From Romanomermis culicivorax (lineage: Eukaryota > Nematoda > Enoplea > Mermithida > Mermithidae): 64,000 bases of DNA. The notes under the pieces were generated by a model. That model was not told where the DNA came from, did not search any database, and saw only the letters and a list, made by a program, of their open reading frames with translations. The stretch's first letter is position 1, and every line of letters starts with the position of its first letter. Position numbers and translations under genes: made by a program. Below are positions 23,782-58,600 of this stretch, piece after piece. The stretch is from assembly GCA_963922205.1 (NCBI GenBank), contig CAWUHX010000292.1, positions 310,001 to 374,000 of the forward strand, given 5' to 3'.

Positions 23782-24127
23782 CCGTCGACTACAATTTTCG
23801 GATCGAATTGACGTTGAAGAAGCCTGAAAATAAAGAAGAAATAAAGAAGCACGAAGGCCGACGATTTTATTTGGCGATTTACCTGGCGTTTTTCGAATTT
23901 TTCGAGCTTGACGATTTTCTTGAAGAACGGCTGAAGAAGAAAATTCACTTTTTTCGATTTTTAACAACGTAATCGCCTGCGCTCGCCAGAATCCTACAGA
24001 ACACCGATGAACTAGAAGTGGACGACCATTATTTGAACGTGCACCACCAGAAGAAAATTTAGAAGAAGAAAATTTACAAGTTTTGGCGAATCAAGAAGAT
24101 CAAGTTTTAGTTGAAAATAGAGACGCA

Positions 24128-31751: not shown

Positions 31752-31974
31752 AGAAAGAAAAAAAAGAGGAAAATAGATAAATACTTGTATATAACGTATA
31801 TTATTTATTGAGAAGGCTCATTTTTATTCTTTTATTCAGTTGTGTACTCCGCCGCTTAAGTATTTCTATATTCTTTCATCAAAGTATTTTTCATATACGC
31901 TTTTTCGGTAAATTGTTATTTTATTTATGTACTCATTTATACTTCGTTATTAACTAATTTCCACATCTGAAGAG

Positions 31975-35335: not shown

Positions 35336-35571
35336 ACTTATTGAAACCCTAGCCTATGTCTCAGGCTTGATTTCAGGAGACTTATCAGTTGTTTCATGGT
35401 TAATTTAAACAATGAGCTCCTGGTATCGGTAAGGGTTCTACTAGATCTTTGCTTGAAATGTGTCAAACAACTTTAACAACTCTATGTTAAAGACTTGAAT
35501 ATTTTCTGAACTGCAATTTTTGCATCTGTTCTACAGATATTTTTACTGATTAGGTTTCTATTAGAGATGTA

Positions 35572-35855
35572 TCTAGTCCAAAATTTTGAAAGTATCGTGT
35601 CTGGGTCCTAAATTTCAAGAATATCGGGTCCGGGTCCACAATTTTAAAAATATTGGCTCCGGGTTTGTGTCCAAACTGGTACGAATCCATTATGTTTTCC
35701 AAAACGCTAATCTGTGTACTTTTGTGTACATCTCCATATAGTAGAGACTAGACATGTATCGGGTCCAAAATTTTGAAAATATCGGTTCTGGGTCCAACAA
35801 AATAGTCGAGTGATTTTGGGTCTCATTTCAGGTCCGGCTCCGCAATACATCTCTA
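35572..35855. mobile_element. hAT MITE
   Basis: 284 bp with inverted ends TAGAGATGTAT and ATACATCTCTA and a perfect 8-bp target duplication GTTTCTAT (35564-35571, 35856-35863). The 8-bp duplication and the TAGAGATG end are typical of hAT. The inside holds three diverged copies of a GGGTCCAAAATTTTGAAAATATCG-like unit. Non-coding. Confidence 0.8.
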
Positions 35856-36970
35856 GTTTCTATAAATCAAATTCTCGCCACATTTGTCATGAAATATTGA
35901 AGACTCGAACTGTGAATACATTTTTTCATCAGGTAGATTAAATTTGAACAAGAAAAGTAGTTCCCAGAAATTCTAATTTTATGAAATAAGTAAATAATGG
36001 TGCATGATTGTTCTTATAATTCTTGCAGCTAGAGCATTATTTAGGTTTAAAACTTCTGCAATCAGTCTCAGTTGACAATAATTGATTGTAAATGAAATCT
36101 TCAAAAATTTAAGATCAAATGTCCCTATTAATTCCAAACTTTTTCAATTTATTTTCGCAGGAAGATAAATTTTTTACATCTAGAGTTCTGATTTTTAGAT
36201 AAATTCGGTGAGCACTTCATTGAATTCCAGCGGCAAAAGCCCCACCACTAGGTCAATCGGCCGCCCAGAAATGAAAATTCCGCTGTCACGTTTTTGGCAA
36301 CAGCGGAAAGAAGTTAGGTGCTGCCAGTGACGAAAATTTTTATGATGACAATCAGAGGAAAACGCCACTAGTAAAAAAAGTCATCAGCGCATCGACGAAA
36401 AATTTCGAGAAAAAATGAAAATATTATAGCTTTTATTTTTAAATCTATTCGAATTATTCACTATGTTGCTCGTTTTGCTCGGTTTTTTGCTTTGCGTTCG
36501 TCAAATTTTGTATTTTTAACACAATTATCGCATATTTTACAGGACTCTAACTTTCTTGTGAAAGCTTTCATTGCTTATTAAAGCTTTTGTATTACTGCAA
36601 AATGTTGAGTTGAATTCTGCTTTCATGAAATGATTAAGAACTGCAAAATGGCGAATTATGTAAACGAGCCTTCCTGCAGAATGTTTGCTCAAAAGATTGG
36701 TTGAGTGTTACACATTCCCAATATCACGAAACGCAAAGCTTGTCAAAAAAGTCGTTAATTCTCCTACTTGAATCGTAACAACTTCAAAACTATGGATTTC
36801 AGCATTTGTGTAGGAAAAAACTTGACCATTCGATAGGGGGTATAGGGGCGTTCAGCCAATCGGAAGACATCAAGAGCCGCCTATCGACCAATCAACAATC
36901 ATCTCGTGACTAGGATAGTCAGCCAATCAAATTAGCGGATTGAAAAAACCGATAGATTTTTTCAATCCGC

Positions 36971-37023
36971 CTCAGCGGAAAGCTGTAAGCGGTTGAAAAA
37001 ACCGCTTACAGCTTTCCGCTGAG
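36971..37023. repeat. Perfect 24-bp stem hairpin at element-satellite junction
   Basis: Arms 36971-36994 and 37000-37023 are exact reverse complements around the loop GAAAA. The right arm resembles the start of each unit of the satellite that follows; the left arm is its inverted copy, abutting the foldback element. Confidence 0.9.
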
Positions 37024-38300
37024 TAGTGTGGTCTAATGACAGATTAACAGACTGGTCCAATTACCTTTTTACCATTTATGCCCACGACATAATATATCCA
37101 CTTGATTTAAGTGAAACATTATTTCGACCGGTTGTAACAAAACTGTAGCATGTGTTTTTTGTTTGTAGTATGATGGGTCTTATCCAACATTGTAGTGTGA
37201 TCCGTCTGATCCGGCATTCACATAACACAATGGTCTGAAATGGAAAAAAAGTTTTAAAGAAGAAAAGAAGATAATTTGGACCAGCCAATTTTAGGTTGGT
37301 CTTTGGCCTTACAAGCCACTTACAGCTATTTGCTGAGTGTGGTCTAACGACAGATTGACAGACTGGTCCAATTATCTTGTTAGCATTTATGTCCATGACA
37401 TAATATATCCACTGGATTCAAGTGAAACATTATTTCTAGGGGTTGGAACAAATATTTAGCATTTTTAGTATGTAGTGTTATCCATCTTATCCGATATATG
37501 TTAGTATCACAATAGGTTGCAATGCAAAAAATAGGTTGCAATGCAACAAATTTTAAAAAACAGTAGTCGAACCTGCTTTTTGTTTTTTGCCCTTAGCATT
37601 TGAAACCTGCTTTCCACTTTTTGATGAGGAATGTGGTTTAACGACAGAATAACAGAGCCCGACCTACTGTCTTGGTTGTATTATTCACATTTGTTATATG
37701 AATCTGCTTCATTTGAATGGAACATTATTTCTATGGGTTGAAAAAACTATTTAGCATGTCTTTATAGTTTGTAGTGTGTAGATAGCTGTCAATGTTAAAA
37801 AAAGCTTTAAATGATCAAAAAATCAAAAACAGTAGTCCAGCCCTGTAACTTCATGATTTGCCATTTGATAATTGGCATGGTTTAACTGCAGAATAACAGA
37901 ATTCATAATTTCAGATTTTATGATTGGCGTGGTTTAACTGCAGATTAACAAGTTGAGGGTTGTCCTACTGTTCGACAACAATATTCGTGTTTGGTATATC
38001 TATTTGCTGCATTCGAATGGAACATTATTTCTACGGGTTGGAAGAATTATTTAGCATGTGCCTTTTCAGTTATAGTGTGATCCGTATGATCCCATCATAG
38101 GCAAATACGAACATATAGGCATACAAATACAAACATAAAGGCATGTTGTATAAAACATTTCTACAGTTGAAAAAACTATTTAGCATCCGATTCGGTGTGT
38201 TTGTCGTACATTATTAGTTAGAAAATCATGAAACACTGAAACACTAACATCTTCCAGTTTTATTATTTAGAAGCAATTGAAATAATCAAATCAAGTAAAC
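37024..38300. repeat. Satellite-like tandem repeats, left array
   Basis: Diverged units of about 250-310 bp begin with GTGGTYTAAYGACAGAWTAACAG at about 37027, 37335, 37630, 37878 and 37927. Each continues to a GAACATTATTTCTANGGGTTG block and TTTAGCATG. No coding sequence. Confidence 0.7.
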
Positions 38301-38577: not shown

Positions 38578-38984
38578 CTAATAGAATACGTCCATCGGGA
38601 CGTGTATACCCCTTTGACGGGCTTTATTGGCCAATTCATCGGCCTCCTTCCTCGCCTGTTGATTTTTACTCATTCTGGCTCATTGGACCAATAGGTCCCT
38701 CAAGCAGTGGACGAAATAATTGTAAGCCGTTTCGAGGCTCCACTGTTCTTTCGGCCTGTAACCTCGCGTCGTCGTCAAATATCCGCACATAAATTCGTAC
38801 ACAGTGGCGATTTGTCCATCTTCGGTTATCAATTTAGAATATTGTGTTTCTTATATTCGTCATAAATTGAATAGGGCCATTTGGTTAATTGCCCCACCAT
38901 CAATCGGATAATATCCTGGTGTAAATGTATATGCCACACAACAATATGTCACCTAAGAACTGAAATAAATGATTATGAGTTTTT

Positions 38985-39300
38985 GGAATACCTGGATCCG
39001 ATTCTCACGGATCACCTAAATTTCTGACTCAAAAATGTCGAAAAAAGTTGGCCAACTTGTTCAACATACTCAACAGGGTCAGGGGAACACGTTAAAATCA
39101 AAATTTTGAAATTTTAAAATTTTTTTAAATTTTTTAAAATTTTTAAAAAAATTTTAAATTTTTTTAAAATCGTCATAGAAATGTCCGCCCTACTCAGAAA
39201 CGTAGGAAAACAAGTTTCCCAAACCCCAAACCCAATTTTTCACTTCAAAAATTGAGAGATCTGCGAAAAAAAATTTTAAATTTTTTTAAAATCATTATAG
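38985..39300 (-). repeat. Repeat B, single copy in the last helicase intron
   Basis: In helicase sense it carries TTTTAACGTGTTCCCCTGACCC, TTGAACAAGTTGGCCAACTT and GTCAGAAATTTAGGTGATCC. It matches the three copies at 50680-51530, which are in plus orientation. Poly-A/T stretches (39110-39170) are part of the unit. Confidence 0.8.
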
Positions 39301-41854
39301 CAATGTCCGGCGAAAGTGTTTCAGGACTCAGAAACGTTAATTTTGAGTTTGAAGAACCATATAAAAACTATCTAACAGAAAACATATCCATAAATAGGAA
39401 AATAAATACCTTTTATGCCATGCCATACAGCGTAATTTGCATCCCGATAATGTCAGTTGTCCATAAAATTGGGTAGCTGTAAATCGTTCTTGAAAATTTG
39501 TGATTTCCAAGTTCGACAAGTGACGCCCCGATTAGCATCCGACGGGTTTATGAAACAATTTCTTGTTGCTGTTAAAATTGTAAGTGCAATTTAAATTGTA
39601 TAACATGTCCCAATTAATACTACTTACAGAGTCGCATTTTGTCGTAATTTTGCAAATTGTTCCCAATTAAGTTGACAACGTAATCGTGGAGTCTCTGTTG
39701 TACATCTGACACCACAATTTCAGCCCAACCGGCAACATAGGTGGAAACGGGAGCCATGTACACCTGGCAATGATTTTGGACCAAAATAGGCATAACGACG
39801 TGAGGAAATTTGTTTACTAGATGTTCGCGTATGCCTAGGGTCAGTGCATATGGCGTCGACATTATTTCTAAACCCAGAGATATAAATGCAACTTTGAAAT
39901 TAGTATATGCTTAAAATAACTCAGTCTGTCTTACTTCTAACCAACACTATTTTGTGTTGGTCGCCTATGCAAGGCCAAGTGGCTTCAAATGGAAGTGATA
40001 TTTCATGGCCAATGGCATCAAGTATGCAGTGATGTTTAATACACCTAAACATCAATATTTAGTGGAATAACTGCACTAAAATGCACTACTAAAATACTAA
40101 AATAGAATTAAGGTTATAAACGATCAATTTTTGCCTACCATTCTACCAATTTACGCCAATGTCGTCGGCCCTCTGTGTTGATTTGATCTTTGTTAACCAT
40201 GAAACACTTTCCTGCTTCCAAGGATGGAAACATAGTAGCGTTGCCAACGACAATAAGCAAGCATCGAGCACGGCTGATTGCGACGTTTAAACATTTAAAG
40301 TTTTCCAAGAATCGGATGGTCAGATATTGATTTGATCGCACGATGTCGTAGATGACAATGTCGGATTCTTGTCTCTGTGAAAAACCCTAAAGTAATGTAT
40401 TGTGATTTAAGTACTAATCATAATTTACCACCTGAAACCCATCTACTGTTCCAATTCGAATTTTACGTAGATCTTCAACGAATAATTCGCTATGTGAGTA
40501 GCTGTGATTCGGCAAATATGTGCCACTTAAAATGGCTTTGCATGCTTCCTCTACTTTTGCTCATAGTTGTTTAACCTGTGGGCTGTACGACCTTATAATA
40601 ACTATGTCGTCGCAGCGCATTTTGTGTTGTCCAATTAAGGAAGCTGCCAGATTGATACAAGCAATTGCTTCGCCTATATTTTGCAGAGATCTTGAATTAT
40701 CATCGGCAGATTCTTCTTTCGCTATATGAATCCAAGCTATGGGATGGCCAGTCATCATTGTCGGAAATGATTTCGGAAGTTGCAGCATGCGTTGTTCTAT
40801 AAGCACAAATGTTGAAACGACAAAATTTACCAGCACTCAAATCATTTTAAACATTGTCCCTATACTGAGTCACATTGTTACCTTTTGTGGTACAATTTTG
40901 TACCCGATTATCGTACGTCAAACTACTGACTATGCTTCCAATTGTGGGGTGCATTCGATATTGTTGGTTCAATAAGATGTACAGCATATCCATGTTGAAT
41001 AACCGCTCAAACAGGGTCTGACTGAATCCTTTTCGTTCTGCTTCTTTGGAAGTCACACACGGCCCTAATTGGCAAGGATCGCCTAAAAGGGTGACCTGAA
41101 AGAGCGAAAATGAAAGGAAAACATAGTACTTGGAAGGAAAATATTCAACAGTTCATTACTCTTCCACTTATGTGAAGTCTTGTAACCGGAATCAAGGTGG
41201 TTGGTTCAGTATCCTGGGCTGCTTCGTCGATCAATACCAGTTTGAAAAAGCACGGTTTTAAGCGGGCATCGGCTGCTCCATTGCAAGTCGTAAAGATTAT
41301 ACGATATTTGCACCTGAGTAGCTGTTTTTTGTATTTGAATAGGCACGCATCTGCTTTTTTGTCTTCGTCTTTCGTGAGTGGTGTCTGGTGTCGAACACCA
41401 TACTTCATTTTGATGCATTGCCTCCAGTTTGGTTTGCTGATGTTAAAAAGAGAGAAACAAGTACAATGTTAAACAGACGGAAACAAATTATGTATTATAA
41501 AGTTTCGAAATCTTTACCAAAATGCCAAATTTTCCGGCTGCATTGCTACAGCTCGCATTGTGTAGGGTCGAATATCATCGTCCGGCTGGTAGTACTTAGC
41601 TCGGCTGGTAAGGCGCACGATGTTATTTTGAACGGGTTCTTTTTCATTGCCTGCATTTTCAACACTTTTCAAAAGTGCTCGTATGATATTGTCTACGGCA
41701 GTGTTTGAAGGCGCCGTTATCAATATTTTTTGACCCTGATCAAGGTCAAATGCTCGTCTGATAATACAAGTAGCTGTGGATGTTTTTCCGGTTCCAGGCG
41801 GGCCCAACAACAATGGGGTTTTTTGGCGTTTCTGGGCAGAAAAAATTATGTGAA

Positions 41855-42047
41855 AAAAAAAATTTAAAAATTTTCTAGCGCTTCAGGCCAGATTAGGGAA
41901 CAAATTACACTTCATCAATCTGATTTCAATTTATTTCCAAACGTTATGCATCCGTAGCCGTATTATAAGCTTTTTTAAAATTTTGGGGAATTTTTGGAAA
42001 ATAAAGAAAAGGAGTTTGGGTCTGGTTCTCACGTGGAAAAAAATAAC
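41855..42047. repeat. Repeat C in helicase intron 2
   Basis: Aligns in two blocks with 53995-54390 inside the hAT-like element: the CTTCATCARTCTGATTTYAATTTATTTCC part and the GGAAAATTTTTGGAAAATAA part. It is probably an old mobile repeat with an internal deletion. Confidence 0.6.
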
Positions 42048-42474
42048 GGAGGACTTACGCAGCTTTCTGACAGGGTTTTTCAAATTCGTCTGATTCAACT
42101 GTCCGATCCACAAAAGTGCGGAATCCAGTTTTGTAATCAAAACTGCATTTCACATTATTATGGTCGTACAACGAAGTATTCGGCGCGCTTTCTTTTATTG
42201 GTTCTTAAGGTTCATGGAATTCTTCGTAGTGTACTTCTATGGCGTCTAATTCATCAAACTCATCCTCAACTTTGGCGTTGATCGGAGGCTACAAATAATT
42301 ATACAATTTAGAATTATTACAAATGTGTGATATTGAAAGACAACTTACTTCAAACGGCGCAGGCTCATCAATATGTGGGTGTGAATAGGACATAGTTGTC
42401 GTGAAAAAGGAAACACGAATGCTTGTTCAACAATAAATAAATTAAATGAGGCCTCACGTTTATCGTTGTAAATG

Positions 42475-42584
42475 TGAGTAGCTGTAGAACAAGTTGCACA
42501 GAGCAGTAAATGGCTTCTTCAACAATCAAGGAAAGAAATAAATCATAAAGCTTATTGTTGTAAACGTGGCTACGTGAGTAGCTG
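42475..42584 (-). promoter_or_regulatory. Two CAGCTACTCA sites upstream of the helicase start
   Basis: Exact 10-mers at 42475-42484 and 42575-42584 (minus strand), 100 bp apart, in the likely 5' untranslated region. The second sits in a partial palindrome with CAGCTACTCACGTAGCC. Confidence 0.55.
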
Positions 42585-42659
42585 TGTAGAACAACACGTA
42601 GTTTTACAAAGCAGTCTAAAAAAAAGTGACGTAAATCCGGATGTCCGCCCCCCATCATA

Positions 42660-43076
42660 ATTAATGGTTACCTATTGTTCTGACAGTTGCGATAAGCTAT
42701 GACAGTAGCTCTCGGCTTCCCGTTTTGCACAAGCGAAGCGATGATGATGGGCTGGGCGGCGGGAGACAGAGACAGACGGTGTTTTTAAAAAACTTTTTGC
42801 GAGTAAGTTGATATACAGTAAACTATTCATCCTATTCCTCCATTTTCAGGAATCAGATACAACTTGTTTGTCATAACACAAAATGCATATGATAGTTTTA
42901 TGCACTTTCGCGTTAGCATGAATCAACAATGAAAATTTTTAGTCACTTATAATGAATGTCGGTAAAATATTTCCAAACCGAACTCCTCCATTTGCCACTA
43001 GTGCAAATTAAATTGCATTAGTGCCCAGCCGTGGGGACGTGGACCCTGAGGTATCCACGGCCATGTGCAAAACTTA
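42660..43076. other. No gene seen
   Basis: Probable upstream region of the helicase gene, with a GC-rich patch at 42700-42780. Ends at the Harbinger target site. Confidence 0.4.
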
Positions 43077-43916
43077 GGGCCGTATTCACGAAAGTGAATT
43101 AGAATTAGAATTAGAATAACTCTAATTCGAATTAGTAATTCGAATTAAGTGCCTTAATTCGAATTACATTTTTTTCGTATTCACGAACATGAATTAGAAT
43201 TAGAATTACTCAATTCGAATTAAACATTTGTAATTCGAATTAAATATCACTAATTCGAATTAAGTCGTGCAATCTGGGCAACGTTTTGCAAAATGTACCT
43301 GTTAATTGAATTTTTATATGACTGCAACTGTTTATTCATCAGGAACTAATAATGCTTAATTAATGTCAGTTTTATGATATATCAGATACAAATTATTCAA
43401 TATGTACTATCACGTATCTCTGCGCTATATACCTTTTTCATCACAGCTTATTAAATTTTATTCAATTTGGAGTTCTATTCGTAATGTCAAACCATCATGA
43501 CCGTGATCAAAATTTCGGATCTACCGAATTGGAGTTTTTGTATTTGTGTGTGAACGAAGGAGTTCAAGTGATCAAAAATAAACGAACTGATGCGAAAAGC
43601 ATGAAAGCAAAGAATCGAGCGTGGGCGGACATAGACAAAGCTTTTGCTAGTAATGCTGACATGAAAAACAATTCATCGATTTCATCCAGTACTAATAACA
43701 AATCCATCACTTATCGCACCAATTGTCAACAATAAACTGACTAATTCGCTCTTTAATTCTACCCCCTAGTAGAATTACGATCTTGAATTGAAATTGTGTA
43801 ATTCTAATTCTAATTCGCCTTCGTGAATACCGATTTTCCCTAATTCCACATTTAATTCAGCTTTTAATTCGAATTAGCTTAATTCTAATTCTAATTCGCG
43901 TTCGTGAATACGGCCC
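43077..43916. mobile_element. PIF/Harbinger-type element, non-autonomous
   Basis: 840 bp with inverted ends GGGCCGTATTCACGAA and TTCGTGAATACGGCCC and target duplication TTA (43074-43076, 43917-43919), as in PIF/Harbinger. The ends continue into iterated GAATTAGAATTA units. A second, inner pair of similar ends (43168 and 43840) suggests a duplicated or nested terminus. It carries a Myb-like frame but no transposase. Confidence 0.85.
43484..43735 (+). CDS. Myb/SANT-like DNA-binding fragment
   Basis: 83 codons starting MSNHHDRDQNFG. The segment around KNKRTDAKSMKAKNRAWADIDKAF matches the start of Myb/SANT-like proteins that Harbinger elements encode beside their transposase (the WxxI helix). 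The usual second half with further Trp residues is missing, so this is a truncated copy, unlikely to function. Confidence 0.55.
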   Translation: MSNHHDRDQNFGSTELEFLYLCVNEGVQVIKNKRTDAKSMKAKNRAWADIDKAFASNADMKNNSSISSSTNNKSITYRTNCQQ

Positions 43917-43919
43917 TTA

Positions 43920-44710
43920 AAGAACTTAAAAAAACCGTGCAAAACATGAAACAAATATATATAGAAAAACATACACAACCATGACTAGAAAAAATAGATG
44001 GATAGAGACAGAATTAGGAAATTAAAGAATTTTTTTGGGGTTTTTTAATTTTAAAATTTTTTTTGGGGTTTTTAAAATTTTTTTTTGTTTTTTGGTTTTT
44101 TAATTTTTTTGTGGTTTTAAAATTTTTTTATGAATGAGCGTAATATAAACCTGAAAAAATTAAATAAAGTAATAAACAAAACATTAACAAATTAGGAAAA
44201 CTGTAAAACTTAATTTGACAAAAATTAACATAAAACATAATATAAACATAATGAATTAAAATAAATGTTAAAAAAACTTACAATTTAAATTAATGTGCAC
44301 CAATTAAAACATTGTAACAGTACATATATACAAAGCGTGGTTTCTTCCAAACAAGTGTTAATCTTAAATGTATCGATGAATTGAAATTGTTAAACCTCTC
44401 TATTTTCTATGTTACGTTTCAAATTATAAAATTATTCACTTATGTTTTGGGTTAAATTTGTACAACAACAGTAAACTTTTGAGCATACTAACCTAAGTAG
44501 CATTTGGGAAAAACCACATCGAATACATAGTAACTAGAAGTAAACAATGAACACATGCACACACAATCACAATAAAATGAAAACTCACAGTAGTTATGAA
44601 ACACAATAAAATACATTACTTTTCATTAGAATTAGAAATTTAAACTGGTATTGAAGGAGGATCTAGGCCGGCAAGGAACCCAACCATTAGAATTCCACCA
44701 TCGTACTCTG
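43920..44710. other. AT-rich, no gene seen
   Basis: Runs of T with GGGGTTTTTT (44030-44130) and A-rich DNA. In minus sense this may be the 3' untranslated region of the arginine-rich gene. Confidence 0.4.
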
Positions 44711-45380
44711 TTATATAAACTTACCCCAATTCGCCAGCAAACTCGGCGTGCTCCTCCAAATTTGGCCAATGTTTATGTCCGCATCAACATCCATGTTTTC
44801 GAACATAGGTGGTGGATTTTCTATTTCTGCAAAGCCTTGGCCGATTTGATTAATAATTACATCGTTGAAATGATCAACATTAACATGATTAGGTTCATTG
44901 ATCAGTAGATCATCCGGATTTTCTTCACGGCGTGGAAGATTTGCACCACGTCTCATGTTACGACGTCTAACCCCAATTTGTCTATTGTTGCCCCGCCGAC
45001 GTTGTTGTCCTCGTCGCACTGCACATTCATTGGAAAAAAAATTAACGTAGAGTGCAGACATACATTAACTTTCAATGTATCTGCTTTATACAGCTTACAT
45101 AATGATCTTTCTTTTTAATCTTTTACATATGATTATGATTAAAATGTGGAATCTATTTACCTCTTCGGGGTGTTCTTATTAGAATCAATGGCAAATCATC
45201 GTCGATTAACGGTTGTTCTTCCCCATTGAGTAGCTGTTCTTCTTGCGGGGGGGGGGTATATTCGCGTTGGTTAATTTCCGGAATCGGATTAGCCATATCA
45301 ACGACATGATCTTCATTGCCGTTGAGTAGCTGTCTGGCCCGTCTACGCAAACAACGTGGATGACGCCGGGCATTGTCCAC
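44711..45380 (-). CDS. Arginine-rich and acidic protein, two exons, unknown
   Basis: Exon 1 (about 45380-45162) encodes a basic start (RRHPRCLRRRARQLL) and an acidic Pro/Glu-rich part (EEQPLIDDDLPLI). It ends at a GTAAATA donor. Exon 2, from about 45018 after ACATTTTCCAATGAATGTGCAG-type acceptor sequence, opens with an Arg-rich block (RRGQQRRRGNNRQ) and continues acidic (DDLLINEPNHVNVDHFNDV). The start is unclear: upstream ATGs are in other frames, and a run of eight or nine C near 45248 may have slipped. Two CAGCTACTCA sites, both read as Gln-Leu-Leu, lie in exon 1. A nucleic-acid or histone-binding role would fit the composition; that is a guess. Confidence 0.45.
45227..45332 (-). promoter_or_regulatory. 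Two CAGCTACTCA sites in the arginine-rich gene
   Basis: Exact copies at 45227-45236 and 45323-45332, minus strand, 96 bp apart. This matches the 100-bp spacing of the pair upstream of the helicase. Confidence 0.5.
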
Positions 45381-46115
45381 TCTTCTTCATTGTCTTCTAA
45401 TGCTTATTGACACATGAATGCGAGGCATTTTGAGTGAAAAAATGTTTGTTGAGTAATTCTTCTTTTAAGCAAGAATGATACACTATTCTATGAAGGGGCA
45501 TCTTAGGGGCAAAGTCCATTTTTGTGCATAAAGGTAAACATTCATTTCCTACTGTAATGTTTACTGGTCACTCATTTCATGTGGAAAATGGACAGGAAGC
45601 AAAAATTGATTATGTGTTGAGCAATGAGGAATGTTACGAATCTTGGGTTGGATTGATAGGTTATGTATAGAATTGTACATAGGAAAACAGTTTTGCAAGC
45701 TTGTGTTGAAACAGGAGCAAAATCTGGGCTTGAAAACCTAAAGAAGATAAAATGTGGTTATATTGTTTATGTGAAAGAAATATTGTGACTGTTAGATACA
45801 ATTGTGTTCATGTTTGTACACATATCACATTTCAAATTGCAGGTAGCTGTTTACTGTAACATTGTTATTCGCGCCTCATTTTTTTATCACACAACGCAAC
45901 ACAGATAAATATTTTTGCCCGTGTCTTGCGTTTCAAAGAAACAACAAATGATGCCTAAAAGTAAGATTGACAACTAATATTACTTTTTGTATTAGCTTAA
46001 CGTATTGAGTAATTTTAGTTAATGCTTATGGTATTGATTGTTATTTATTTTTCGCATTTTTTGCTTTAGCAAACGAATGAAATTGTATTTTTTTGCAATT
46101 ACGTAATTGGATCCA
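45381..46115. other. Divergent intergenic region
   Basis: It separates minus-strand genes to the left from the plus-strand transposase to the right and should hold both promoters. No TATA box stands out. AGGTAGCTGT at 45841 is a partial form of the 10-mer. Confidence 0.4.
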
Positions 46116-46333
46116 CAGCTACTCATTGTCTACGGTACAAAATAAAAATTCAACGATTTACTGCTTTTACATCAGCTACTCACATGTCACCAAATATTTC
46201 TCTGTTGATATAGACCACGACGTAGCATTTCGAATTTATAGTAATTCGCCATCTGCTACTCACAAAGTCAACAATAATTGACATTTTCAATTCTACGATT
46301 TTGACCTTCCACAAAGTTGCTTACAGCTACTCA
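46116..46333 (+). promoter_or_regulatory. Cluster of CAGCTACTCA sites before the transposase start
   Basis: Exact copies at 46116-46125, 46173-46182 and 46324-46333, and one with a single mismatch (CTGCTACTCA, about 46253-46262). The last lies four bases before the first ATG (46338). Confidence 0.6.
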
Positions 46334-48119
46334 ACAAATGTATTCGGACAACAACCAATACGACTCCGATGATGACTTCAAGCAAACTCCTGGTCTACCA
46401 TCCCAAGTTGATCAACCTAAAGATGATCTGCCGAAGATCGAATCAAATGCAAATGCAACATCTGCCAAAACGGAAGATACGCCAGTTTCTTCAGGATGTT
46501 CCATTCCCGTTATGACCAACAGACAATGCAGATTAGAACCTAAGGATTTGGATAAGTTAATTGGTAAGTGAATTGTTTATTTTTGTGAAACTTACATCCA
46601 AAATTAATTACCAGTTGTTTTTATGTTTTCCAACTGTATCTAATATTTCAGCTTCAGCTAACGCAGAACGATTAATCGACAAACCGTCACCTTGTCAAAA
46701 AGGAGGAGATGTTTACTTGTTTCCATACTCCCACAAAGAAGATAGTAATATACTTGTCACATTATTTATGTTAACCTTATATAATATTTGTACTTCCTCA
46801 TAGAATCCTTTCTCTGCGATTGTTATAATTGGATAAATGATGGAGTTCGAAAACTTCCAAGGTCTAATCCAAAGTATTCAGCTACTCACTACGCGGTCGC
46901 CTGCGACCGAAATTCCAAATCAAAGAAGAACTTTAAAAGAATGGAATATCGGCAGATAAATCCAACGTCCGACAATCATCTATTCATCGGAGTAGTCCAC
47001 TACATTGGCGATGAAAAAGATGGCGTCAGGCCAAAGCATTTTAATTCAAACAGTGACAAAGTCTTTATTCGAAATGCTCCAGTCATCAAGAAACTGGTTG
47101 AAGTCGAACTAAAACGAGACCCGAACATTACACCTTCTCAATTGTATGAAAAATTTAAATAGACAATCCTGCTCCATTGGGCCTGGAAGCTGTCGTACAT
47201 GGCAGAGGTCGAAAACAGGTAAATATATTTAAATAGATATCTCAAGTAGTACAATTTTTATAACACTCATATTTGTAAATTATAAATATGCCACAAACTA
47301 AAATTACTCTTTTAGATGGCCAACTTCAAATATGGCATTCAAAATAAATTTCGGCCGACAATGGACGCCATTTACAATTTAAACACTTTCATTCGCGAGA
47401 ATGAACACCAATTTATAATGAGCATAGAACAAACGGCTCAAGACTTTTTGGTATCATGTATGTTGCCAGACACGCCTGAAATAATTAACGAATTAATAAC
47501 GGAATATCCAAACGAGCCATTTGTCGTTCTTTACGACACGACGTTTGAATTGGGTGATTTTTATGCATCAGCAGCAATTTATCACCAAAAAAGCTTTATT
47601 GGCCAACCAGTTTTCCCACTCGGCGTCCTTATACATGAGAAAAAATTCAAAGAAAACCATTGTGGCTTTATACAAAGAATTTTTCGACAGCTACCCATTC
47701 GTATGACAAATGGGAACATCAAAACCGTTATAATTACGGATCGCAAATTTGATTTCCGAAATTTGACGCCAAACACGGTGCACGTTTATTGCTGGCGACA
47801 TTTAGTAGAAAATGTTACTCGGAAAATTACCGAATTATGTCCCAAAAATAACAACTTGTGTGTTGCGATAGTGAACAATTTATATTTGATTCTAAAATCT
47901 GACTCCGAGAATCTAGCAGCATTAAAAGCTGAAGAACTAAGTGAAAAATGGCCAAAAAAGTTCTAACAATATTACTTTTCATCCATTGCGCCAGCTGTTC
48001 GAAAAATGAGTGTTGGAACCAATCGGGTTGTACTCCAGCTTCTCAGGTATATTAATTTAAACACACCTACATATCAAGGTTTTTTGATATTATTTCAAAT
48101 ATTAACAAATGAAATGTTT

Positions 48120-48345
48120 CCATATGTCAAAAGCCTATAGTTTTAATTAATTATAGTTAATAATGTATAATTTTAATTAATTAATTTAAATACATATTTT
48201 TTAATTAATAATTTATAGTTTTACTTAATTAATTTAAATACATATTTTTTAATTAATAATTTATAGTTTTAATTAATTAATTTAAATACATATTTTTTAA
48301 TTAATAATTTATAGTTTTAATTAATTAATTAAAATACATATTTTA
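48120..48345. repeat. AT-only tandem repeat in transposase intron 4
   Basis: Three to four units of about 57 bp built from TTAATTAATTTAAATACATATTTT and AATAATTTATAGTTTT. Probably local slippage. Confidence 0.8.
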
Positions 48346-50669
48346 GGCCTAACGACCAACGCCAGCGAAAGTTTCAACAAAGTCCTGAAGACCTGGACTT
48401 CTTGGAGAGAAATGCCCATTGACGTGGCCGTTCTGGCTTTCTACACCCTATTTCATTATAACAACGTCGATTATGACCGCGCCAAATATGGAGTTGGGGA
48501 TTTCAAGCTCAACACCCACATTCCAATGAGGCCTGCCAACAAAATGCTGAAAAGAGAAATAATTGAACCGGGAAACATTTTACAATACTGTCGATTTGGC
48601 CAAGTTTGCATACAACTACCGCAGCGGGAAGAGCCAAAATCACATTGCCGTGGAGATGCTGATTCAAATTTCCGAATTGGTCAATTTTTGGTCGAAAATG
48701 GAAAGGTAGTCCACGACACCCTATCAAGAGTAATAATTCATAATGTAGTTATTGACTCTGTTGTCTATATTTTTCAATTAATTTACAAATTTTTTTTGGT
48801 GCTTCAACATAACTGAAAATGGCAAGGTGTATCTAGTTCGATTCAACCCTACCAGCTGCGGTTGCAGCGACAAGGCATGCGCCCACTTGATAGCCGCTCG
48901 TTTGTCCTGCAGTTTACCAGTTACCGTAAAGGCCAACAGAAACATCACTACTTTGCGACGTGCAGACAAACGAAAGATAAGCAAATCAAAGTTGGGACGC
49001 AAACATCCTCGCAAGGACGACTTTACGAACATAAAGCCGAAAGTTACCGATATTGAATTTGACGACGAGGAGTCCGAAACTCAAGTACAAACAGCTACTT
49101 GTGATGACGACCTCGAAATCAGGAAGCCTGCAAACACACAAGTAGAAACAGCTACTTGTGTTGATGACATCAAAATTCGGAAGCCTGCGACAAAAGATTT
49201 GGATTTCGACACTCAAGTAGATACAGCTACTTGTGACTACGATTCCCAAAGTGATGCCGTTGAAAAAAATAACAACGATTTTACAAATTGCCGCGGGCAT
49301 CCAGTGGAAACAACTAATTGTGCCTACAATGCCGGTCGGTTATCTGTAAAACATCTTGAGTAAGTGGTTAAAATATATTTGTTATCATTGTGGTTAAAAT
49401 TCAAATGTACATATATTCAATTCAGGCACATAGAAGAAGAATGTGAATCATTATTTGATAACATTGGTAATGCATCTCCGCCCAATTTCAACTCACAGGC
49501 TACAGTTTTGGTTGATTCACAATCGCAAACTACTGAAGCTCTAAATACAAAAAGGTAAACATTTAACAAGTAGGATCTGCACTTATATCTTTTAATAAAC
49601 TGACATATTCCGACCAATTTCATTCACATTAACATTTTCTGTTTAAAAGAGGCTACAATTATAATTGATTCGCAAATTTCAACCTGCGATGAAATTGAAG
49701 ACATGGATATAATACCTCAAATGTGACCAAAACCAGTAATATTTAATTGATATTTGAATTATTTTTTAATTAACTAATTTAATTTTTGCATTCAGATGGA
49801 CTTATCAATGCTAATTAGTAACAACCTCTCGAATTTAGAACCCGAAGAGGATGAGGAAATAATTGCCCGCCTTAGCGATGTCGACGACAATGCTTTATTG
49901 AACGTATCATTAAAATCGAAAGATGCGAAGCAGACATTCTGGGAATGTCAAGTCGATAAAACTGTTAATCACATGCTTGAATGTGATGCACAAGTTGACG
50001 ACAATTGCCGAATATGGTACCATCCGGAGTGCGAAAATATTTCCAATATTTATTTTTCGCTTAAAAACAATCGAAGAAAACCCGACAACAAATTTTATTG
50101 GGAATGCGCGCACTGCTTCATTCTTCAATACTTCGGAAATTCGCCGCAAATCGATTTGGCTCTGCAAAAATGTCAACTACAGAATACTTGTACGATCGAT
50201 CCTGGCCTTACAACTTTCTATATTAAGGCAAAGTTTTGCCCAAAATTCCTGCAACAGGTAATTTAAATGCTGTATTACATAACATTCATGAATTAATTTC
50301 AAACATTACAGCTACCCATCGAATTGTCAATGTTAAAAAAATCATTGACATTGGCACTTAAACACCAATTCGGGGAAGCTGAATTGGAGTGGATGAATTA
50401 CATACGCTTCCAGAAGAATGCAGTAGAAGAAAAAAATATAACCAGAGATGGCTCGGGCAATTCGGTGCTGCCGACGAGTTCTTCTTGAGCCATATCAGCA
50501 CCATGTACACTCTCCAACGACGCAGCGAGTGTTCCATAGCCAAATGCCCAATGCGGATTAACACCCAAGAAATAACACGCTATGCACTGTAAGTCTTTTG
50601 TTAATTAATCTCTTGAGGTTTTTGAGATACTTGTTAAAAGTTCTACAAATTTTGATTTTAATGTGTTCC

Positions 50670-51590
50670 CCAGACCCAATTAGGAGTGAAAAAATTGTTT
50701 TCCTACGTTTCTGAATACGGGGGACATTTCTATGACGATTTTAAAAAAATTTAAAATTTTTTTAAAAATTTAAAAAAATCTAAAAAAATTTTAAATTTTT
50801 AAAATTTTGATTTTAACGTGTTCCCCTGACCCTGTTGAGTATGTTGAACAAGTTGGCCAACTTTTTTCGACATTTTTGAGTCAGAAATTTAGGTGATCCG
50901 TGAGAATATGATCCAGGTTTTCCCGGATCACTCGGCCACGGATCACTCAATTTTTGAAGTGAAAAATTGTGTTCTGGGTTCGGGAAACTTGTTTTCCTAC
51001 GTTTCTGAGTACGGCCGACATTCCTATGACGATTTTAAAAAATTTTAAAATTTTTTTAAAAATTTGAAAAAATTTTAAATTTTTAAAATTTTGATTTTAA
51101 CGTGTTCCCCTGGTCCTGTTGAGTATGTTGAACAAGTTGGCCAACTTTTTTCGACATTTTTGAGTCAGAAATTTAGGTGATCTGTGAGAATATGATCCAG
51201 GTTTTAGTCGTGCACATCTAAAACCCGAATGACTCGGCCACGGATGACATAAATTTTTGAAGTGAAAAATTGTGTTCTGGGTTCGGGGAAACTTGTTTTC
51301 CTACGTTTCTGAGTACAGCGGACATTTCTATGACGATTTTTAAAAAATTTAAAATTTTTTAAAAAATTTAAGAAAATTTAAAAAAATTTTAAATTTTTTA
51401 AATTTTGATTTTAACGTGTTCCCCTGACTATGTTGAGTATTTTGAACAAGTCGGCCAACTTTTTTCGACAATTTTGAGTCTGAAATTTAGGTGATCCGTA
51501 GGAGCCGATACACTCTGTTTTAAAGTAAAAACTTGCGTTTGGGGTTTGGGAAAATTGCTTTTCTATGATTTTTAATTACGGCGGACATTT
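50670..51590 (+). repeat. Repeat B, three tandem copies in transposase intron 10
   Basis: Three units of about 300-310 bp, each with TACGTTTCTGARTACGG, GGACATT..TATGACGATTTT, a poly-A/T core, TTAACGTGTTCCCCTG and GGTGATCYGTGAGAATATGATCCAGG. A single copy sits in the last helicase intron, so the repeat lies in gene-sense orientation in both genes. Confidence 0.85.
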
Positions 51591-52104
51591 CTCCTCACGT
51601 TAGTGAGTAAAGGACTTTACGGTTTATGTTATAGTACCAAAAAAGATAAAACGATCGAGAATTTGGTGAATAAACATCTTCGCAAAATTAAGCAAATTTG
51701 TGGACAAAGACATGAGAACGGGTCAACAAAATGTCCAGGTATACGAACTTTTTCTGCGCCTACCTTTACGATGCAACAGCTACTCATGTTGCCCCCAATT
51801 TATTTGTGCAACGCACCATTCGATGACGTTTTTGCATTGCCAACAGAGTTGACCTTTAATCGACGATGGTAAAAACAAACTGGTGTTGTGTTTTGTTTTT
51901 TTTAACTCTACATTCTTCAGATATCATCTGTTGTCGGTTATCGTTTATATCTCCAACCACTTCGCATGCATATTCCTTCGACCGGGGACTTCATCAAAAG
52001 AATATTTCCTTTGCGACGATTTGCAGAAAAGAATGGTACGAGTAGCAGAAGGTAGTGGAAACAGGCATCTTTTACAATATGCCTTGTATTTTCTAGATTG
52101 TTAA

Positions 52105-55119: not shown

Positions 55120-55683
55120 ACTTTGGGTAAAGTTTGAAAAAAATTTTGATCTGGATCAAAAATTTTGATCTGGATCAAAATCTGATTATGTGACGAGAAA
55201 ATACTCATCACGCGGGAAAAATACAAAAAATTTTACTGTAGGGGAAATTTGAAAAAAAAATTTGATCTGGATCAAAAATATTGATCTGGATCAAATTCTG
55301 ATTATGTGATGTGAAAATACTCATCATGACGAAAAAATTCGAAAAAATTTGATCTAGATCAAAAATTTTTGATTCGGATCAAAAATTTTGATCCGGATCA
55401 AAATATTATGATCCGGATCAAATATTCGGGTTCCCGATCAAAAATTAATACATAGAAACCGGATCCGTGGAGGGTGATCCATGATGAAAATCCGGGTTTT
55501 AGACGAATTTTCCACGGATCTGGATCACCAGACTGATCCACCGTGATCCGTGGTGATCCGGGTTTTAGGCACCAAAAACCATGGTTTAGCGAGCCAAACC
55601 CCCGATCCGCCGATCCGTGGTGATCCGGGTTTTAGGCACCCGATCCGGATCCGTGGACCCGATCCGGGTTTTAGTGCTACCCG
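55120..55683. repeat. GATCC-palindrome-rich block
   Basis: Dense GATCTGGATC, GATCCGGATC and AAAATTTTGATC palindromes followed by GTGGTGATCCGGGTTTTAGGCACC-like units repeated two to three times. The GATCC / GGTTTTAG words also occur at the ends of Repeat B (38985 and 51180-51240). Non-coding. Confidence 0.75.
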
Positions 55684-58600
55684 GTTTTTTCAAATACTGT
55701 AGGAAAAATCTATCGGTTTTTTCAAAGTGAAAACGTATCGGTTTTTTCAATTCGCTAATTTGATTGGCTGAAAATCCTAGTCACGATATGATTGTTGATT
55801 GGTCGATAGGCGGCTCTTGTTGTCTTCTGATTGACTGGGCAATTATCTGAATGCCTCGGTACCCTAATTTCCATTGTTATTGGATTCTAGTGACACACTG
55901 CGCGAAAATTCTCTACAACTTCATTGCAAATGTTTTTTCCTACCCAAATTCTGATATCCATAGTTTTGAACTTGTTACGATCCAAATAAGAAAATTAACT
56001 ACTTTTTTGGTAAGCTGAGCGTTCCGTGGTATGGGAATGTGTGAACACTGAACCAATCTTTTGAGCGAACATTCTACAGGAAGGCTCGTTTACATAATTA
56101 GCCATTTTGCAGTTCTTGATCATTTCGTGAAAGCAGACTTCGACTCTACATTTTGAAGTAATATAAAAGCTTTAATAAGCAATAAAGGCTTTCACAAGAA
56201 AGGAAGAATCCTATAAAATATGTGATAACTGTGATAGAAAATAAATTTGACGAATTCAAAGCAAAAAATCGAGAAAAACGAGCATTGTGAATAATTCGTA
56301 TACATTCCAAATTAAAACCTGGAATAATTTCATTTTTTCTCGAAATTTTTCGTCGATGCGCTGATGACTTGTTTCGCTAGTGGCGTTTGTAAGGGTTTTC
56401 AATGTGTGGGTCAATGGTAAATACAGGTTACTGTAGCTGAATTATTCTGTTTTCTTCAGAAACGTCAACAAAAACGTCAATGGATGGACCGCAACGGCAA
56501 TGATTAGGAAAGCGCCAAGGTAATTTTAAAAGGAAAATCTTAGTCTCGCAACGAAATTATATTTCTTTCCAGCTTCCAACAGTCGCAAAGCCGGACGGAA
56601 CGAATGACGTTTTATCCAGCGACCCTACGACGTTATTCAAGAGCGGAGAAGAAAGCAGGTAAGCTAAATTTATTAGTGAAATGAAGTAATTTTTACATAC
56701 AAAACAGACATATATATATATATAAAGAAAAAGACATAAAAACTAAGTTATAACGTCATAGTTTCACATAATATTAGATCATAATCTTGGTAGGCGTAGT
56801 CATATATTTTTAAATAAGTTCCATGACGTAAGGCAAAGAATCTTGGCACAATGTCTACAGTAGGATCGGATAACGTAGGTTTGCCTGGTATGTGTGTGAC
56901 CGTGAGAGCATCGCCGTTTACTGTAGGTTGCTCAACGGCTATTATTAGTGATTGATTTGTAGCGCTCCCACACGTTGTTTGATTGTCATCATAGAAATTT
57001 TTGTTACTGGCGGCACCTAACTTCATTCCGCTGTTGCCAAAAACTTCACAGCGGAGTTTTCATTTCTGGGCGGCTGATTGACCTACAGTGGCGGAGCTTT
57101 TGCATCTGGCATTCAATGAAGGGCTCATCAAGTTTATCCAAAAATAACTCTAGATGTAAAAATTGTTTTCCATACAAAATATGCATAAAAATCATCAACA
57201 ATACTATCTTCAAAAACGTTCAGGGGGTGTTTGACATTTTTTCTCAGGCCGGGGGGTGTCCAGGGTCTCGAGTAGGAGAGTTTACCCCCTACTCCCTATG
57301 TGCATGTATGGTCCAAATCCCCACTCTCATCACACCATAAACCAGGAAAAAACAGAGCTGGCAAAGATATACTTTTCGGAATTCTGAATTTTGGGTTTCT
57401 GATGGTTTTTCTGTCAGATGAGTTGGCATTTGAATCGATAATTCGAAGACTTTAATAAAACCTTCAATGTGCCAGTTGTAAGTTAAAACTAATCGAAATA
57501 AAAAATCTTTAGACTTATGCTGGATTACAGAAATATACAAATATTACTATAAACATAACCAGCACTTCACGCCAGAAAATTTTGGGGTTTTGACCTTCTA
57601 AAATGAAGTTAAAATGAAGTCCTTTCGATTTAGAAATCCTGAAATTTTTTTCATCATGTAGCGGCAGCACCCAGTTTATTTACATTGAAGAATACCTCTT
57701 GTTGCATCAACTTGGCGAAAGAAATGCGCTCAGAAATGTTTGAATTATGTAACAATCTGTGGCATCACCACTCGATAGTGAAGCCCAATCAAAAATTTTT
57801 TTAACAGGGCACGTTTGTTTAATAAAAAAGTGGCCAGGAACGTAAAATGAGTACCAAAATTGACACTATATATAATAGAATATTTTTTAAATGAACAATT
57901 TATATAGAAAAACATTCGTGATTCGTAAAATTCTACAGAGCGACGAGAAAAGATTTTTAATTTCTGGCAACTAATATCTCAGAAAAATCACTTCGAATGT
58001 GAGAAATGGCTCTTGAATTGTGGGTTATTTTTTAGCTTTTCAGGTTGATGATAGAACTCTAATGAAATATTGAATCGAAAAATGCAAAAATTCTTGTCAA
58101 AAAGCACATTAATATCTAAGCAAGAACCCAAACCTCAGTCAGACTTGTAAAAATAGCAACCTCAAGGCTAAATACGCTGATTTTTATTAAAAGATTTGAA
58201 AAAGTTAATTTATTTGATGCTTCGTACCATAAAATTTGTGCACTTTTTTACACTAAGGAATGCATATTCGATTTTCTTTCTATTGGAGGTCAAAATTCGT
58301 GTTTTTGGGCTGCGTCCGGTTCGCCCCTCCCACTAATGAACCGCATCAGCTTATTCCGCACCAAAAAACGCGCTAAAGCCCTAACGTCGTGGTGTTGTTA
58401 CATTATGCTCGACGAAATAGTTCTAGCATAGCAACCTATTTAAAAATCTTGATTATGGATTTACCGACGTCAATCAATTCTTATCTTAAGCATTTGATTA
58501 TCTCAAATGATTCAAAACTCACTAGCAGAGCAGTGTCAAAAAATGTTCCAAAGCGGCGCGAAAAACCGATAATCCTCCCGATATTCGATCGACGACATCA

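What the first reader, a model, noticed from the sequence alone, without database searches (positions are those of the whole stretch)
40495..51786. CAGCTACTCA: an over-represented, strand-polarised 10-mer across the helicase-transposase block
Exact copies: minus strand at 40495, 41315, 42475, 42575, 45227, 45323; plus strand at 46116, 46173, 46324, 46879, 51777. About 0.1 copy is expected by chance in the whole window, and I noticed none elsewhere in it. The strand always matches the local gene and flips at the divergent midpoint (about 45.4-46.1 kb). Copies lie in 5' untranslated sequence and in coding sequence in all three phases (Gln-Leu-Leu, Ser-Tyr-Ser, Ala-Thr-Gln/His), so protein sequence alone does not explain them. 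Near forms: CAGCTACCCA at 39470, 47698 and 50309; CAGCTACTTG three times at 49097-49230. It may be an RNA- or DNA-level signal recognised by the element's own proteins.
Basis: seen in the sequence. Interest (0 to 1): 0.88.

Follow-up and report, generated by a model that had tools for sequence, protein, structure and literature searches.

The report
Strand-matched sequence tag in nematode transposon
A large jumping gene in what looks like a mermithid worm genome carries about twenty copies of one short sequence, all reading in the direction of its own genes, and a distant cousin family in the same genome carries a different short sequence in the same layout, as if each family labels its own messages.

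Summary
All 11 CAGCTACTCA copies exist (0.05 expected). The core is CAGCTAC: 19 copies in 38.9-52.0 kb, 4 in the rest of the window, with perfect polarity: 9 minus, then 10 plus.

The window lies in a 359-Mb eukaryote genome, probably a mermithid nematode. The carrier is a multicopy Mutator-like (MULE) transposon encoding a transposase (plus strand), and a UPF1-like helicase and a small arginine-rich protein (minus strand). Seven other fetched copies, several partial, share most of the sites; the motif is better conserved than its flanks in coding sequence and in 5' leaders. In hand gene models no site lies wholly inside an intron.

A diverged clade in the same genome (about 35-45% identical transposase) lacks CAGCTACTCA but carries C[AG]GATACCTC in the same polarised layout, twice at the orthologous position. 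The word was found in one element, then recovered in others.

Best reading: a clade-specific tag on the element's own transcripts, read by an element-encoded factor. Action on RNA is inferred, not shown; a DNA-level, VANC-like reading remains open.

The parts
40495..40504 (-). CAGCTACTCA, exact copy, in helicase coding sequence (His-Ser-Tyr-Ser frame)
   Evidence: exon e9 in copy B
41315..41324 (-). CAGCTACTCA, exact copy, in helicase coding sequence (Gln-Leu-Leu); CAGCGACTCA in copy C5
   Evidence: exon e7 in copy B
42475..42484 (-). CAGCTACTCA, exact copy, upstream (5' leader) of the helicase ATG
42575..42584 (-). CAGCTACTCA, exact copy, upstream (5' leader) of the helicase ATG; CAGCTACTCG in two copies and in B
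45227..45236 (-). CAGCTACTCA, exact copy, coding sequence of the small Arg-rich gene (Gln-Leu-Leu)
45323..45332 (-). CAGCTACTCA, exact copy, coding sequence of the small Arg-rich gene (Gln-Leu-Leu)
46116..46125 (+). CAGCTACTCA, exact copy, upstream (5' leader) of the transposase ATG
46173..46182 (+). CAGCTACTCA, exact copy, upstream (5' leader); CGGCTACTCA in 13 of 31 aligned sequences
46253..46262 (+). CTGCTACTCA in the window, CAGCTACTCA in 27 of 31 aligned sequences; upstream (5' leader)
46324..46333 (+). CAGCTACTCA, exact copy, ends 4 nt before the transposase ATG (46338)
46879..46888 (+). CAGCTACTCA, exact copy, transposase coding sequence (Ser-Ala-Thr-His)
51777..51786 (+). CAGCTACTCA, exact copy, near the end of the transposase coding sequence (Gln-Leu-Leu); CAGATACCTC at the orthologous place in clade-2 element D
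39470..39479 (-). near form CAGCTACCCA, helicase 3' coding region
41767..41776 (-). near form CAGCTACTTG, helicase P-loop exon (Thr-Ala-Thr-Cys)
45840..45849 (-). near form CAGCTACCTG, upstream (5' leader) of the small Arg-rich gene
47688..47697 (+). near form CAGCTACCCA, catalytic-domain exon
49092..49101 (+). near form CAGCTACTTG, first of three in a coding tandem repeat
49149..49158 (+). near form CAGCTACTTG
49224..49233 (+). near form CAGCTACTTG
50309..50318 (+). near form CAGCTACCCA straddling a 3' splice site (CAG|CTACCCA); CAGATACCTC at the orthologous place in clade-2 element D
38581..42393 (-). UPF1-like SF1 helicase gene (hand model with introns; one in-frame stop and a deletion in this copy). 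Pfam AAA_11/AAA_12. That the coding pieces left of about 39.3 kb belong to the same transcript is inferred
44711..45428 (-). small gene: arginine-rich blocks and acidic C-terminal part (open in copy B, interrupted in the window)
46338..52104 (+). MULE transposase gene, about 12 exons by hand (11 stretches checked, one more splice seen): CG-1-like N-terminus (weak, through a homologue), catalytic domain, SWIM-like CxC..CxH (by eye), PHD (weak), C-terminal region
38985..39309 (.). repeat unit, inverted relative to the 50691-51592 array
50691..51592 (.). tandem array of about 300-bp units in a large intron of the transposase gene (hand model)
43076..43916 (.). MITE-like insertion with inverted ends, absent from the six other copies aligned here; not part of the element
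55667..55682 (.). right end of the element: last sequence shared by four copies, each followed by different DNA

Best explanation
CAGCTAC-YYR (mostly CAGCTACTCA) is an element-specific, sense-strand recognition tag built into the transcripts of a helicase-carrying MULE transposon. About 20 copies sit in the 5' leaders and exons of its three genes, so each messenger of the element carries several. I propose that a factor encoded by the element reads the tag and marks its own messengers as self. The UPF1-like helicase, perhaps with the arginine-rich protein or the transposase, is the likeliest reader. Marking would help export, translation or stability, or shield the RNA from decay and from the RNA-triggered silencing reported for clade I nematodes. 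In a diverged clade of the element the tag and, I infer, its reader have changed together to C[AG]GATACCTC. Shown: over-representation, complete polarity, conservation above the flanks, clade-specific replacement in the same layout.
For: Polarity: 19 of 19 sites in the window and 24 of 24 alignment positions over seven copies (window included) follow the local gene. No antisense CAGCTAC in the gene spans of five clade-1 copies checked (19, 24, 22, 21 and 19 sense). Location: of the 19 window sites 12 are coding, 6 lie upstream of an ATG, 1 straddles a 3' splice site (hand models); none in 5,166 bases of element outside the genes (P about 0.0015). Selection: between copies C1 and B, 13 coding sites keep 129 of 130 motif letters (flanks 933/1070) and 7 leader sites keep 68 of 70 (flanks 461/576). 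Clade shift: D, E and C284 have GATACCT 8, 5 and 5 sense, 0 antisense, and CAGCTAC 1/1, 1/0 and 0/0. CAGATACCTC then appeared, perfectly polarised, at 4 further elements not used to derive it (24 of 24 sites). Two D sites sit within 1-2 nt of clade-1 sites. In both clades a site lies just 5' of the inferred transposase ATG. The helicase core best matches UPF1.
Against: No RNA data at all. Exon confinement is modest evidence: exons are 73% of the helicase span and roughly two thirds of the transposase span (hand count). Motif sites are not more single-stranded than random places. The arginine-rich gene is not seen between helicase and transposase in C284, so it is unlikely to be the universal reader. 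The transposase has a weak CG-1-like (DNA-binding) N-terminus, which would suit a DNA target. Within family A the conservation contrast is small at some sites (46173: 0.935 against 0.931; 46116: 0.967 against 0.957). Near forms are only slightly above the reversed control genome-wide. Of five distant transposase matches on contigs covered by the CAGATACCTC list, C7:96172 has one site nearby and C7:584920 none. In E, GATACCT ranks fifth among 7-mers, among satellite and other words.
Confidence: 0.5

Rival explanations
1. DNA-level, VANC-like tag: an element-encoded DNA-binding protein (for example the CG-1-like N-terminus of the transposase) binds the motif along the element body to oppose silencing or drive transcription; the motif changes together with the protein between clades.
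For: VANDAL MULEs use family-specific 8-9-base motifs linked to their own VANC proteins, differing between families (PMC5735166, passages). Clade-specific motifs in one genome. The N-terminus aligns with a homologue that has a weak Pfam CG-1 match, E 0.0035, below its curated cut-off. DNA-methylation machinery is reported in R. culicivorax (PMC4323106, passages).
Against: A double-strand target gives no obvious reason for 19 of 19 orientation with transcription, for lying in coding exons, or for absence from introns and from the non-genic ends. VANC motifs lie in non-coding tandem repeats; here 12 of the 19 window sites are coding.
Confidence: 0.27
2. Small-RNA target: a clade-specific small RNA pairs with the tag in sense transcripts. 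The YYR end is what G-U wobble pairing with a 5'-UGGGUAGCUGU guide would tolerate.
For: 7-10 conserved bases, sense only, in leaders and exons; in the window all variants at the last three positions are transitions.
Against: The best conserved bases are the 5' seven, not the 3' end that would face a guide's 5' end; no candidate small-RNA gene was sought; the reason for about 20 sites is unclear.
Confidence: 0.12
3. General host signal (splicing, translation or transcription) that the element happens to use.
For: Sites begin with CAG, one window site (and a second position, in other copies) straddles a 3' splice site, one precedes the start codon.
Against: Two clades in one genome use different motifs. 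In the window's other roughly 51 kb, which holds two coding retroelements, CAGCTAC occurs 4 times. Genome-wide, 52 of 100 listed CAGCTACTCA places lie by element genes under a rule that misses partial copies, where the reversed control predicts about 30 background places per 100; the other listed places were not examined.
Confidence: 0.06
4. Chance, protein constraint, or inheritance from copied blocks without function.
For: Three CAGCTACTTG sites lie in one coding tandem repeat.
Against: Shuffles, three codon phases, leader sites, differing flanks, conservation above flanks, and replacement in clade 2.
Confidence: 0.03

Closest known systems
VANDAL/VANC anti-silencing system (Arabidopsis MULEs; PMC5735166, PMC10398659, passages seen)
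   Same: MULE transposons; short motifs accumulated inside the element; related families with different motifs; proposed co-change of motif and element protein.
   Different: VANC motifs are DNA sites in non-coding tandem repeats. Here the motif is dispersed, strand-polarised, in coding exons and leaders; no VANC-like protein was identified; the host is an animal.
Rehavkus MULE-like elements (PMC6446971, passages)
   Same: PHD finger with a MULE-type transposase, invertebrate hosts, tandem repeats toward the 3' side.
   Different: The table lists one ORF and no helicase; listed hosts are arthropods and annelids; no dispersed polarised motif is mentioned in the passages seen.
UPF1/NAM7 family SF1 helicases (PDB 2xzo)
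   Same: Helicase core of the element's minus-strand gene, E 3.5e-46.
   Different: Encoded by a transposon; no UPF1 CH-domain match in the hand-spliced N-terminus.
Polarised DNA octamers read by motor proteins (Chi, KOPS; recalled, no call)
   Same: Short oriented motifs that diverge from a midpoint, near a helicase gene.
   Different: Those span whole replichores (recalled); here sites stop at the gene ends and are not seen wholly inside introns.

Membership tests
VANDAL/VANC-type anti-silencing system | MULE transposase in the element | tested here: met
   Homologues P0002 and P0004 carry Pfam MULE (PF10551) and cover 82% and 88% of the query; our own protein has no direct Pfam hit
VANDAL/VANC-type anti-silencing system | family-specific short motif differing between related families | tested here: met
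   CAGCTACTCA against C[AG]GATACCTC
VANDAL/VANC-type anti-silencing system | motifs in non-coding tandem repeats | tested here: not met
   mostly dispersed; 12 of 19 window sites coding
VANDAL/VANC-type anti-silencing system | element encodes a VANC homologue that binds the motif as duplex DNA | not testable with these tools
   no VANC model or binding data used
Rehavkus | MULE-like transposase with PHD finger | tested here: met
   PHD weak in the window copy (E 0.0049, below the curated cut-off), above cut-off in homologue P0004
Rehavkus | 26-400 bp terminal inverted repeats and 9-bp target duplication | tested here: inconclusive
   right end mapped at 55682, matching left end not found in the stretches held
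Rehavkus | phylogenetic placement with Rehavkus transposases | not tested
   no Repbase sequences on hand
UPF1-like SF1 helicase | AAA_11/AAA_12 helicase core, closest to UPF1 among solved structures by sequence | tested here: met
UPF1 proper | N-terminal CH domain | tested here: not met
   no such Pfam match in the hand-spliced N-terminus; splicing is approximate

The most novel reading that the evidence does not exclude
Clades sharing a genome have diverged in both word and reader, giving separate self-recognition channels that protect or license only their own transcripts.
Probability: 0.42. Interest if true: 0.92.

Novelty: new variant of a known kind. Interest (0 to 1): 0.8.

Why it matters
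If true, it is an animal transposon with a short sequence code for self-recognition that ignores codon phase, and two versions of that code coexist in one genome. That would make the question of how transposons mark or shield their own transcripts directly testable, since the sites, the candidate readers and a natural swap control (two clades, two words) are all in hand. It would also place a captured UPF1-type helicase in a transposon-host contest, in a nematode group reported to lack piRNAs (PMC4323106, passages).

Tried and rejected
Minisatellite word in D: the first enriched words in D (GATGTTTCAACA type) turned out to be a tandem satellite outside the genes, not a dispersed motif.

Transposase end-recognition: not supported, because no CAGCTAC site lies in the 5,166 bases outside the genes, the mapped right end included. 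The left end is not mapped.

RNA structure around sites: no difference from random places, mean unpaired 0.465 over 22 sites against 0.460 over 220 controls.

Rfam (gathering threshold) and ARAGORN scans of the window: no hits.

Arginine-rich protein as the one reader: weakened, as none is seen between the two genes in C284.

Near forms genome-wide: CAGCTACYYR 4,472 against 3,316 for the reversed control. Taking out the exact 10-mer leaves 3,014 against 2,884, so near-form support rests on position, not on genome counts. In other copies one position reads CAGCTACAAG, not YYR.

My nearest-gene strand test used the 100 listed places per motif: 52 and 24 fell near element genes, of which 47 and 20 agreed in strand. 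The 9 exceptions lie on the transposase side, upstream of its ATG, and were given to the helicase by the distance rule; they read with the transposase. At C2:1223691 and C9:951638 no transposase exon is listed nearby, so that reading is inferred from layout. Other small groups in the CAGATACCTC list (for example C2:327342-341622 and C4:1880039-1888487) have no listed element gene near and were not examined; C13:2107000 and 2107848, about 12 kb beyond the C13 transposase exon, were not counted.

F (L050) was set aside as a truncated or composite copy.

The helicase homology search (637 proteins, 120 listed) returned mostly general SF1 helicases and gives no genomic context. A paper search for a transposon-encoded UPF1-like helicase or MULE returned one paper, on helicase domains in insect retrotransposons (listing only). 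The exact-motif and MULE/Ulp1/PHD searches listed nothing relevant (listings only). PMC13359780 was seen only as passages and adds no helicase or motif. A C-terminal Ulp1-like peptidase was not confirmed by Pfam.
Full report
What was claimed. All 11 are there, on the stated strands, and nowhere else in the window (100 shuffles, mean 0.05). Counting the 7-base core CAGCTAC gives 19 sites in 38.9-52.0 kb against 4 in the remaining roughly 51 kb. They are strictly ordered: 9 on the minus strand (39473-45843), then 10 on the plus strand (46116-51777). The three bases after the core are YYR in all 19. In a sense-strand word count against an order-3 Markov expectation, CAGCTAC is the top 7-mer of the region (19 sense, 0 antisense, 2.1 expected). 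The chance that 19 random strands fall in a minus-then-plus order at any breakpoint is 4e-5.

What the carrier is. The window is G000:C292:310001-374000 in a 359-Mb, 595-contig genome. Two of the five homologues found for the transposase come from the mermithid nematode Romanomermis culicivorax (P0001, P0003); P0001 is 84% identical to the window's catalytic exon over 116 residues. The plus-strand gene is a MULE transposase by homology: P0002 (30% identity, 82% of the query) and P0004 (28%, 88%) carry the Pfam MULE domain. P0004 also has PHD, C48 peptidase and a weak CG-1 match in the stretch that aligns with our N-terminus. Our own protein had no Pfam hit in the 690 residues tested (copy B) and a weak PHD in the window (E 0.0049). 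A SWIM-like CxC..CxH is visible by eye. The minus strand carries an SF1 helicase (AAA_11/AAA_12) whose core is closest by sequence to UPF1 among solved structures (E 3.5e-46). It also carries a small arginine-rich, acid-tailed protein with no Pfam match. In the window copy several frames are broken (for example an in-frame stop at 47160 and one in the helicase), a piece present in other copies is missing near 41.8 kb, and a MITE-like insertion sits at 43076-43916, absent from the six other copies aligned.

It is a repeated element, and the helicase belongs to it. Six further copies were fetched whole or in part. Between them they align with the window from 36999 to about 55.7 kb; three are partial (C2_446 lacks most of the helicase side, C5 and C2_1216 most of the transposase side). 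The right end lies at 55682, where four copies part company. The left end was not found. A search with the catalytic exon gave 151 matches, a lower bound, from close copies down to about 35% identity. Of 80 helicase matches that I compared (of 107 found), 66 have a transposase match from my typed list within 25 kb, and 64 of those are divergently arranged.

The motif is conserved between copies, with its polarity. In the seven-copy alignment (window included) there are 24 CAGCTAC positions, 12 minus on the left and 12 plus on the right, with no exception in strand. Single copies depart at some positions: C5 has CAGCGACTCA and CAGCTAGTTG, C2_446 CGGCTACTTG, and one position reads CAGCTACAAG in three copies and CAGCAACAAG or similar in three others. 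In 31 aligned sequences (30 loci plus B) covering ten sites, seven sites have the dominant 10-mer in at least 27 (45843, 46116, 46253 and 47688 in 27; 46879 in 28; 46324 in 29; 49224 in 30). 49149 has 25; 46173 is split 16 CAGCTACTCA to 13 CGGCTACTCA; 49092 lies in a tandem repeat that is hard to align. Two of the 30 loci, L024 and L039, lack the exact 10-mer altogether. The window's own CTGCTACTCA at 46253 occurs in no other of the 31. Motif columns are better conserved than flanks at all ten sites, but at some only just (46173: 0.935 against 0.931), as expected if old copies decay neutrally.

The comparison of two subfamilies is sharper. With B as reference, 189 of 190 motif letters are kept against 1,362 of 1,630 flank columns (P 6e-13). 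With C1 as reference, all 23 sites together give 207/230 against 1,529/1,886 (P 5e-4); two of those sites fall in gaps of B and account for 20 of the 23 misses. Split by class, leaving out those two sites and one splice-site case, 13 coding sites keep 129/130 (flanks 933/1070, one-sided P 1e-6) and 7 leader sites keep 68/70 (flanks 461/576, P 6e-5) (the one variant coding site was checked to lie in exon e3). Flank counts include gap columns. The leader result cannot be due to protein constraint if the hand models are right.

Genome-wide. CAGCTACTCA occurs 1,458 times against 432 for the reversed word. Only the first 100 places are listed (contigs C1 to part of C7). In them, runs with the same minus-then-plus order appear at C1:1567301-1578615, C2:453028-461144, C2:1223691-1229886, C2:2992501-3004045 and C7:324802 onward. 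C5:353820-363197 has six minus sites and no plus side.

A diverged clade uses another word. D (L045/L046; 43% identity to the window in the catalytic exon) has the same divergent layout, though without the central region, and no CAGCTACTCA. The strongest polarised 8-mer in its genes is GATACCTC (7 sense, 0 antisense, 0.2 expected), read as C[AG]GATACCTC. Its site at 11857 (CAGATACCTC) maps within 2 nt of the window's 51777, and 11384 within 1 nt of the splice-site form 50309 (measured on copy C7). Other D sites (for example 5327, 8567, 9022, 12085) align to clade-1 sequence without the motif, so sites are both kept and turned over. E (L049) is the same family as D, roughly 80-90% alike in most aligned blocks; there GATACCT is 5 sense to 0 antisense but ranks fifth among 7-mers. 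C284 (L051, 3 kb, 45% identity) shows the layout around the promoter: GATACCTC twice on the minus strand on the helicase side and three times on the plus strand on the transposase side, one of them directly before the inferred ATG. In clade 1 a site also lies just before the ATG.

The word was then tested on loci not used to find it. CAGATACCTC occurs 635 times against 406 reversed. Within the 100 listed places (contigs C1 to part of C23), four elements show perfect outward order: C4:2069735-2079929 (5 minus, 4 plus), C13:2089746-2094553 (3, 2), C21:1339068-1347520 (3, 3), C9:951638-956167 (2, 2). Helicase matches lie at all four, and transposase matches at C4, C13 and C21. Two further distant transposase matches on the covered contigs do not add support: C7:96172 has a single site nearby, on the gene's strand, and C7:584920 none. 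Cross-check within gene spans: clade-1 sets have 19, 24, 22, 21 and 19 sense CAGCTAC, no antisense, and no CAGATACCTC. D, E and C284 have CAGCTAC 1 sense/1 antisense, 1/0 and 0/0, and GATACCT 8, 5 and 5 sense with no antisense.

Where the sites lie. By hand models, minus-strand CAGCTAC sites of copy B are in exons (820, 1859, 2678, 3133, 3343, 6963, 7047), upstream of the coding starts (5111, 5193, 7535) or at a 3' splice site (912). A further GCTACTCA is in an exon (3951). Plus-strand sites in the window are upstream of the ATG (46116, 46173, 46324, and the variant 46253), in exons (46879, 47688, 49092, 49149, 49224, 51777) or at a 3' splice site (50309). None is wholly inside an intron. None lies in the 5,166 bases of element outside the genes (P about 0.0015; 3e-4 with a narrower gene span; both took 55687 as the right end, five bases too far). 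Transcription starts are not known, so leader means upstream of the ATG on the gene's strand.

How it most likely works. A signal that always reads with the gene, ignores codon phase, is not seen inside introns or at the element's ends, and sits in leaders and exons fits a mark on RNA. Because two clades in one genome use different words in the same layout, its reader is most simply something each clade carries itself. The UPF1-like helicase is present in both clades and is the obvious RNA-type candidate; the transposase is the other shared candidate. The benefit is a guess. Clade I nematodes are reported to lack piRNAs, and for Trichinella silencing of transposons through RNA-dependent RNA polymerase, Dicer and DNA methylation is proposed, with methylation machinery present in R. 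culicivorax (PMC4323106, passages), so an element would gain if its RNA is handled as a normal messenger. The main rival is a DNA mark like VANC in VANDAL MULEs (PMC5735166 and PMC10398659, passages), which shares the family-specific short words but not strand, exon or coding placement.

Novelty. I found no description of this in the searches made (listings of an open-licence library only). The Rehavkus group of MULE-like elements (PMC6446971, passages) is the nearest filed kind for the transposase, but it is listed with one ORF and no helicase, and its defining ends were not established here. I file the motif system as a new variant of family-specific transposon self-recognition, with a fair chance that it is a new kind acting on RNA.

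Noticed in passing
4310-14266: BEL/Pao-type LTR retroelement on the minus strand with 99.3% identical direct repeats and a Phlebovirus G2-like glycoprotein domain (Pfam PF07245, E 3e-89) (the BEL/Pao name is recalled)
   Followed up: partly
23132-33978: LTR retroelement on the plus strand, 98.7% identical 630-bp direct repeats, RT/RNase H/integrase and a Monjiviricetes-type fusion glycoprotein domain; it sits inside a copy of another repeat
   Followed up: partly
55683-59256, with a second copy at 22106-23131 plus 33979-36960: a roughly 3.5-kb repeat with inverted ends abutting the right end of the MULE; the second, inverted copy lies at its left side, interrupted by the LTR element
   Followed up: partly
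43076-43916: MITE-like insertion with about 50-bp inverted ends (AGGGCCGTATTCACGAA...) and a small open frame; not in the six other element copies
   Followed up: partly
36999-38095: tandem array of about 300-bp units at the left side of the element; the other copies show several overlapping matches to it
   Followed up: no
L045 (C214:284922-294921) 1000-4700: in clade-2 element D, a satellite array next to the genes repeats a unit containing GATGTTTCAACA; window 52.9-54.9 kb matches the same array
   Followed up: partly
L050 (C212:584306-593305) 5500-7700: open frames that look by eye like a family B DNA polymerase right beside a clade-2 transposase fragment, perhaps a nested Polinton-like element
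   Followed up: no
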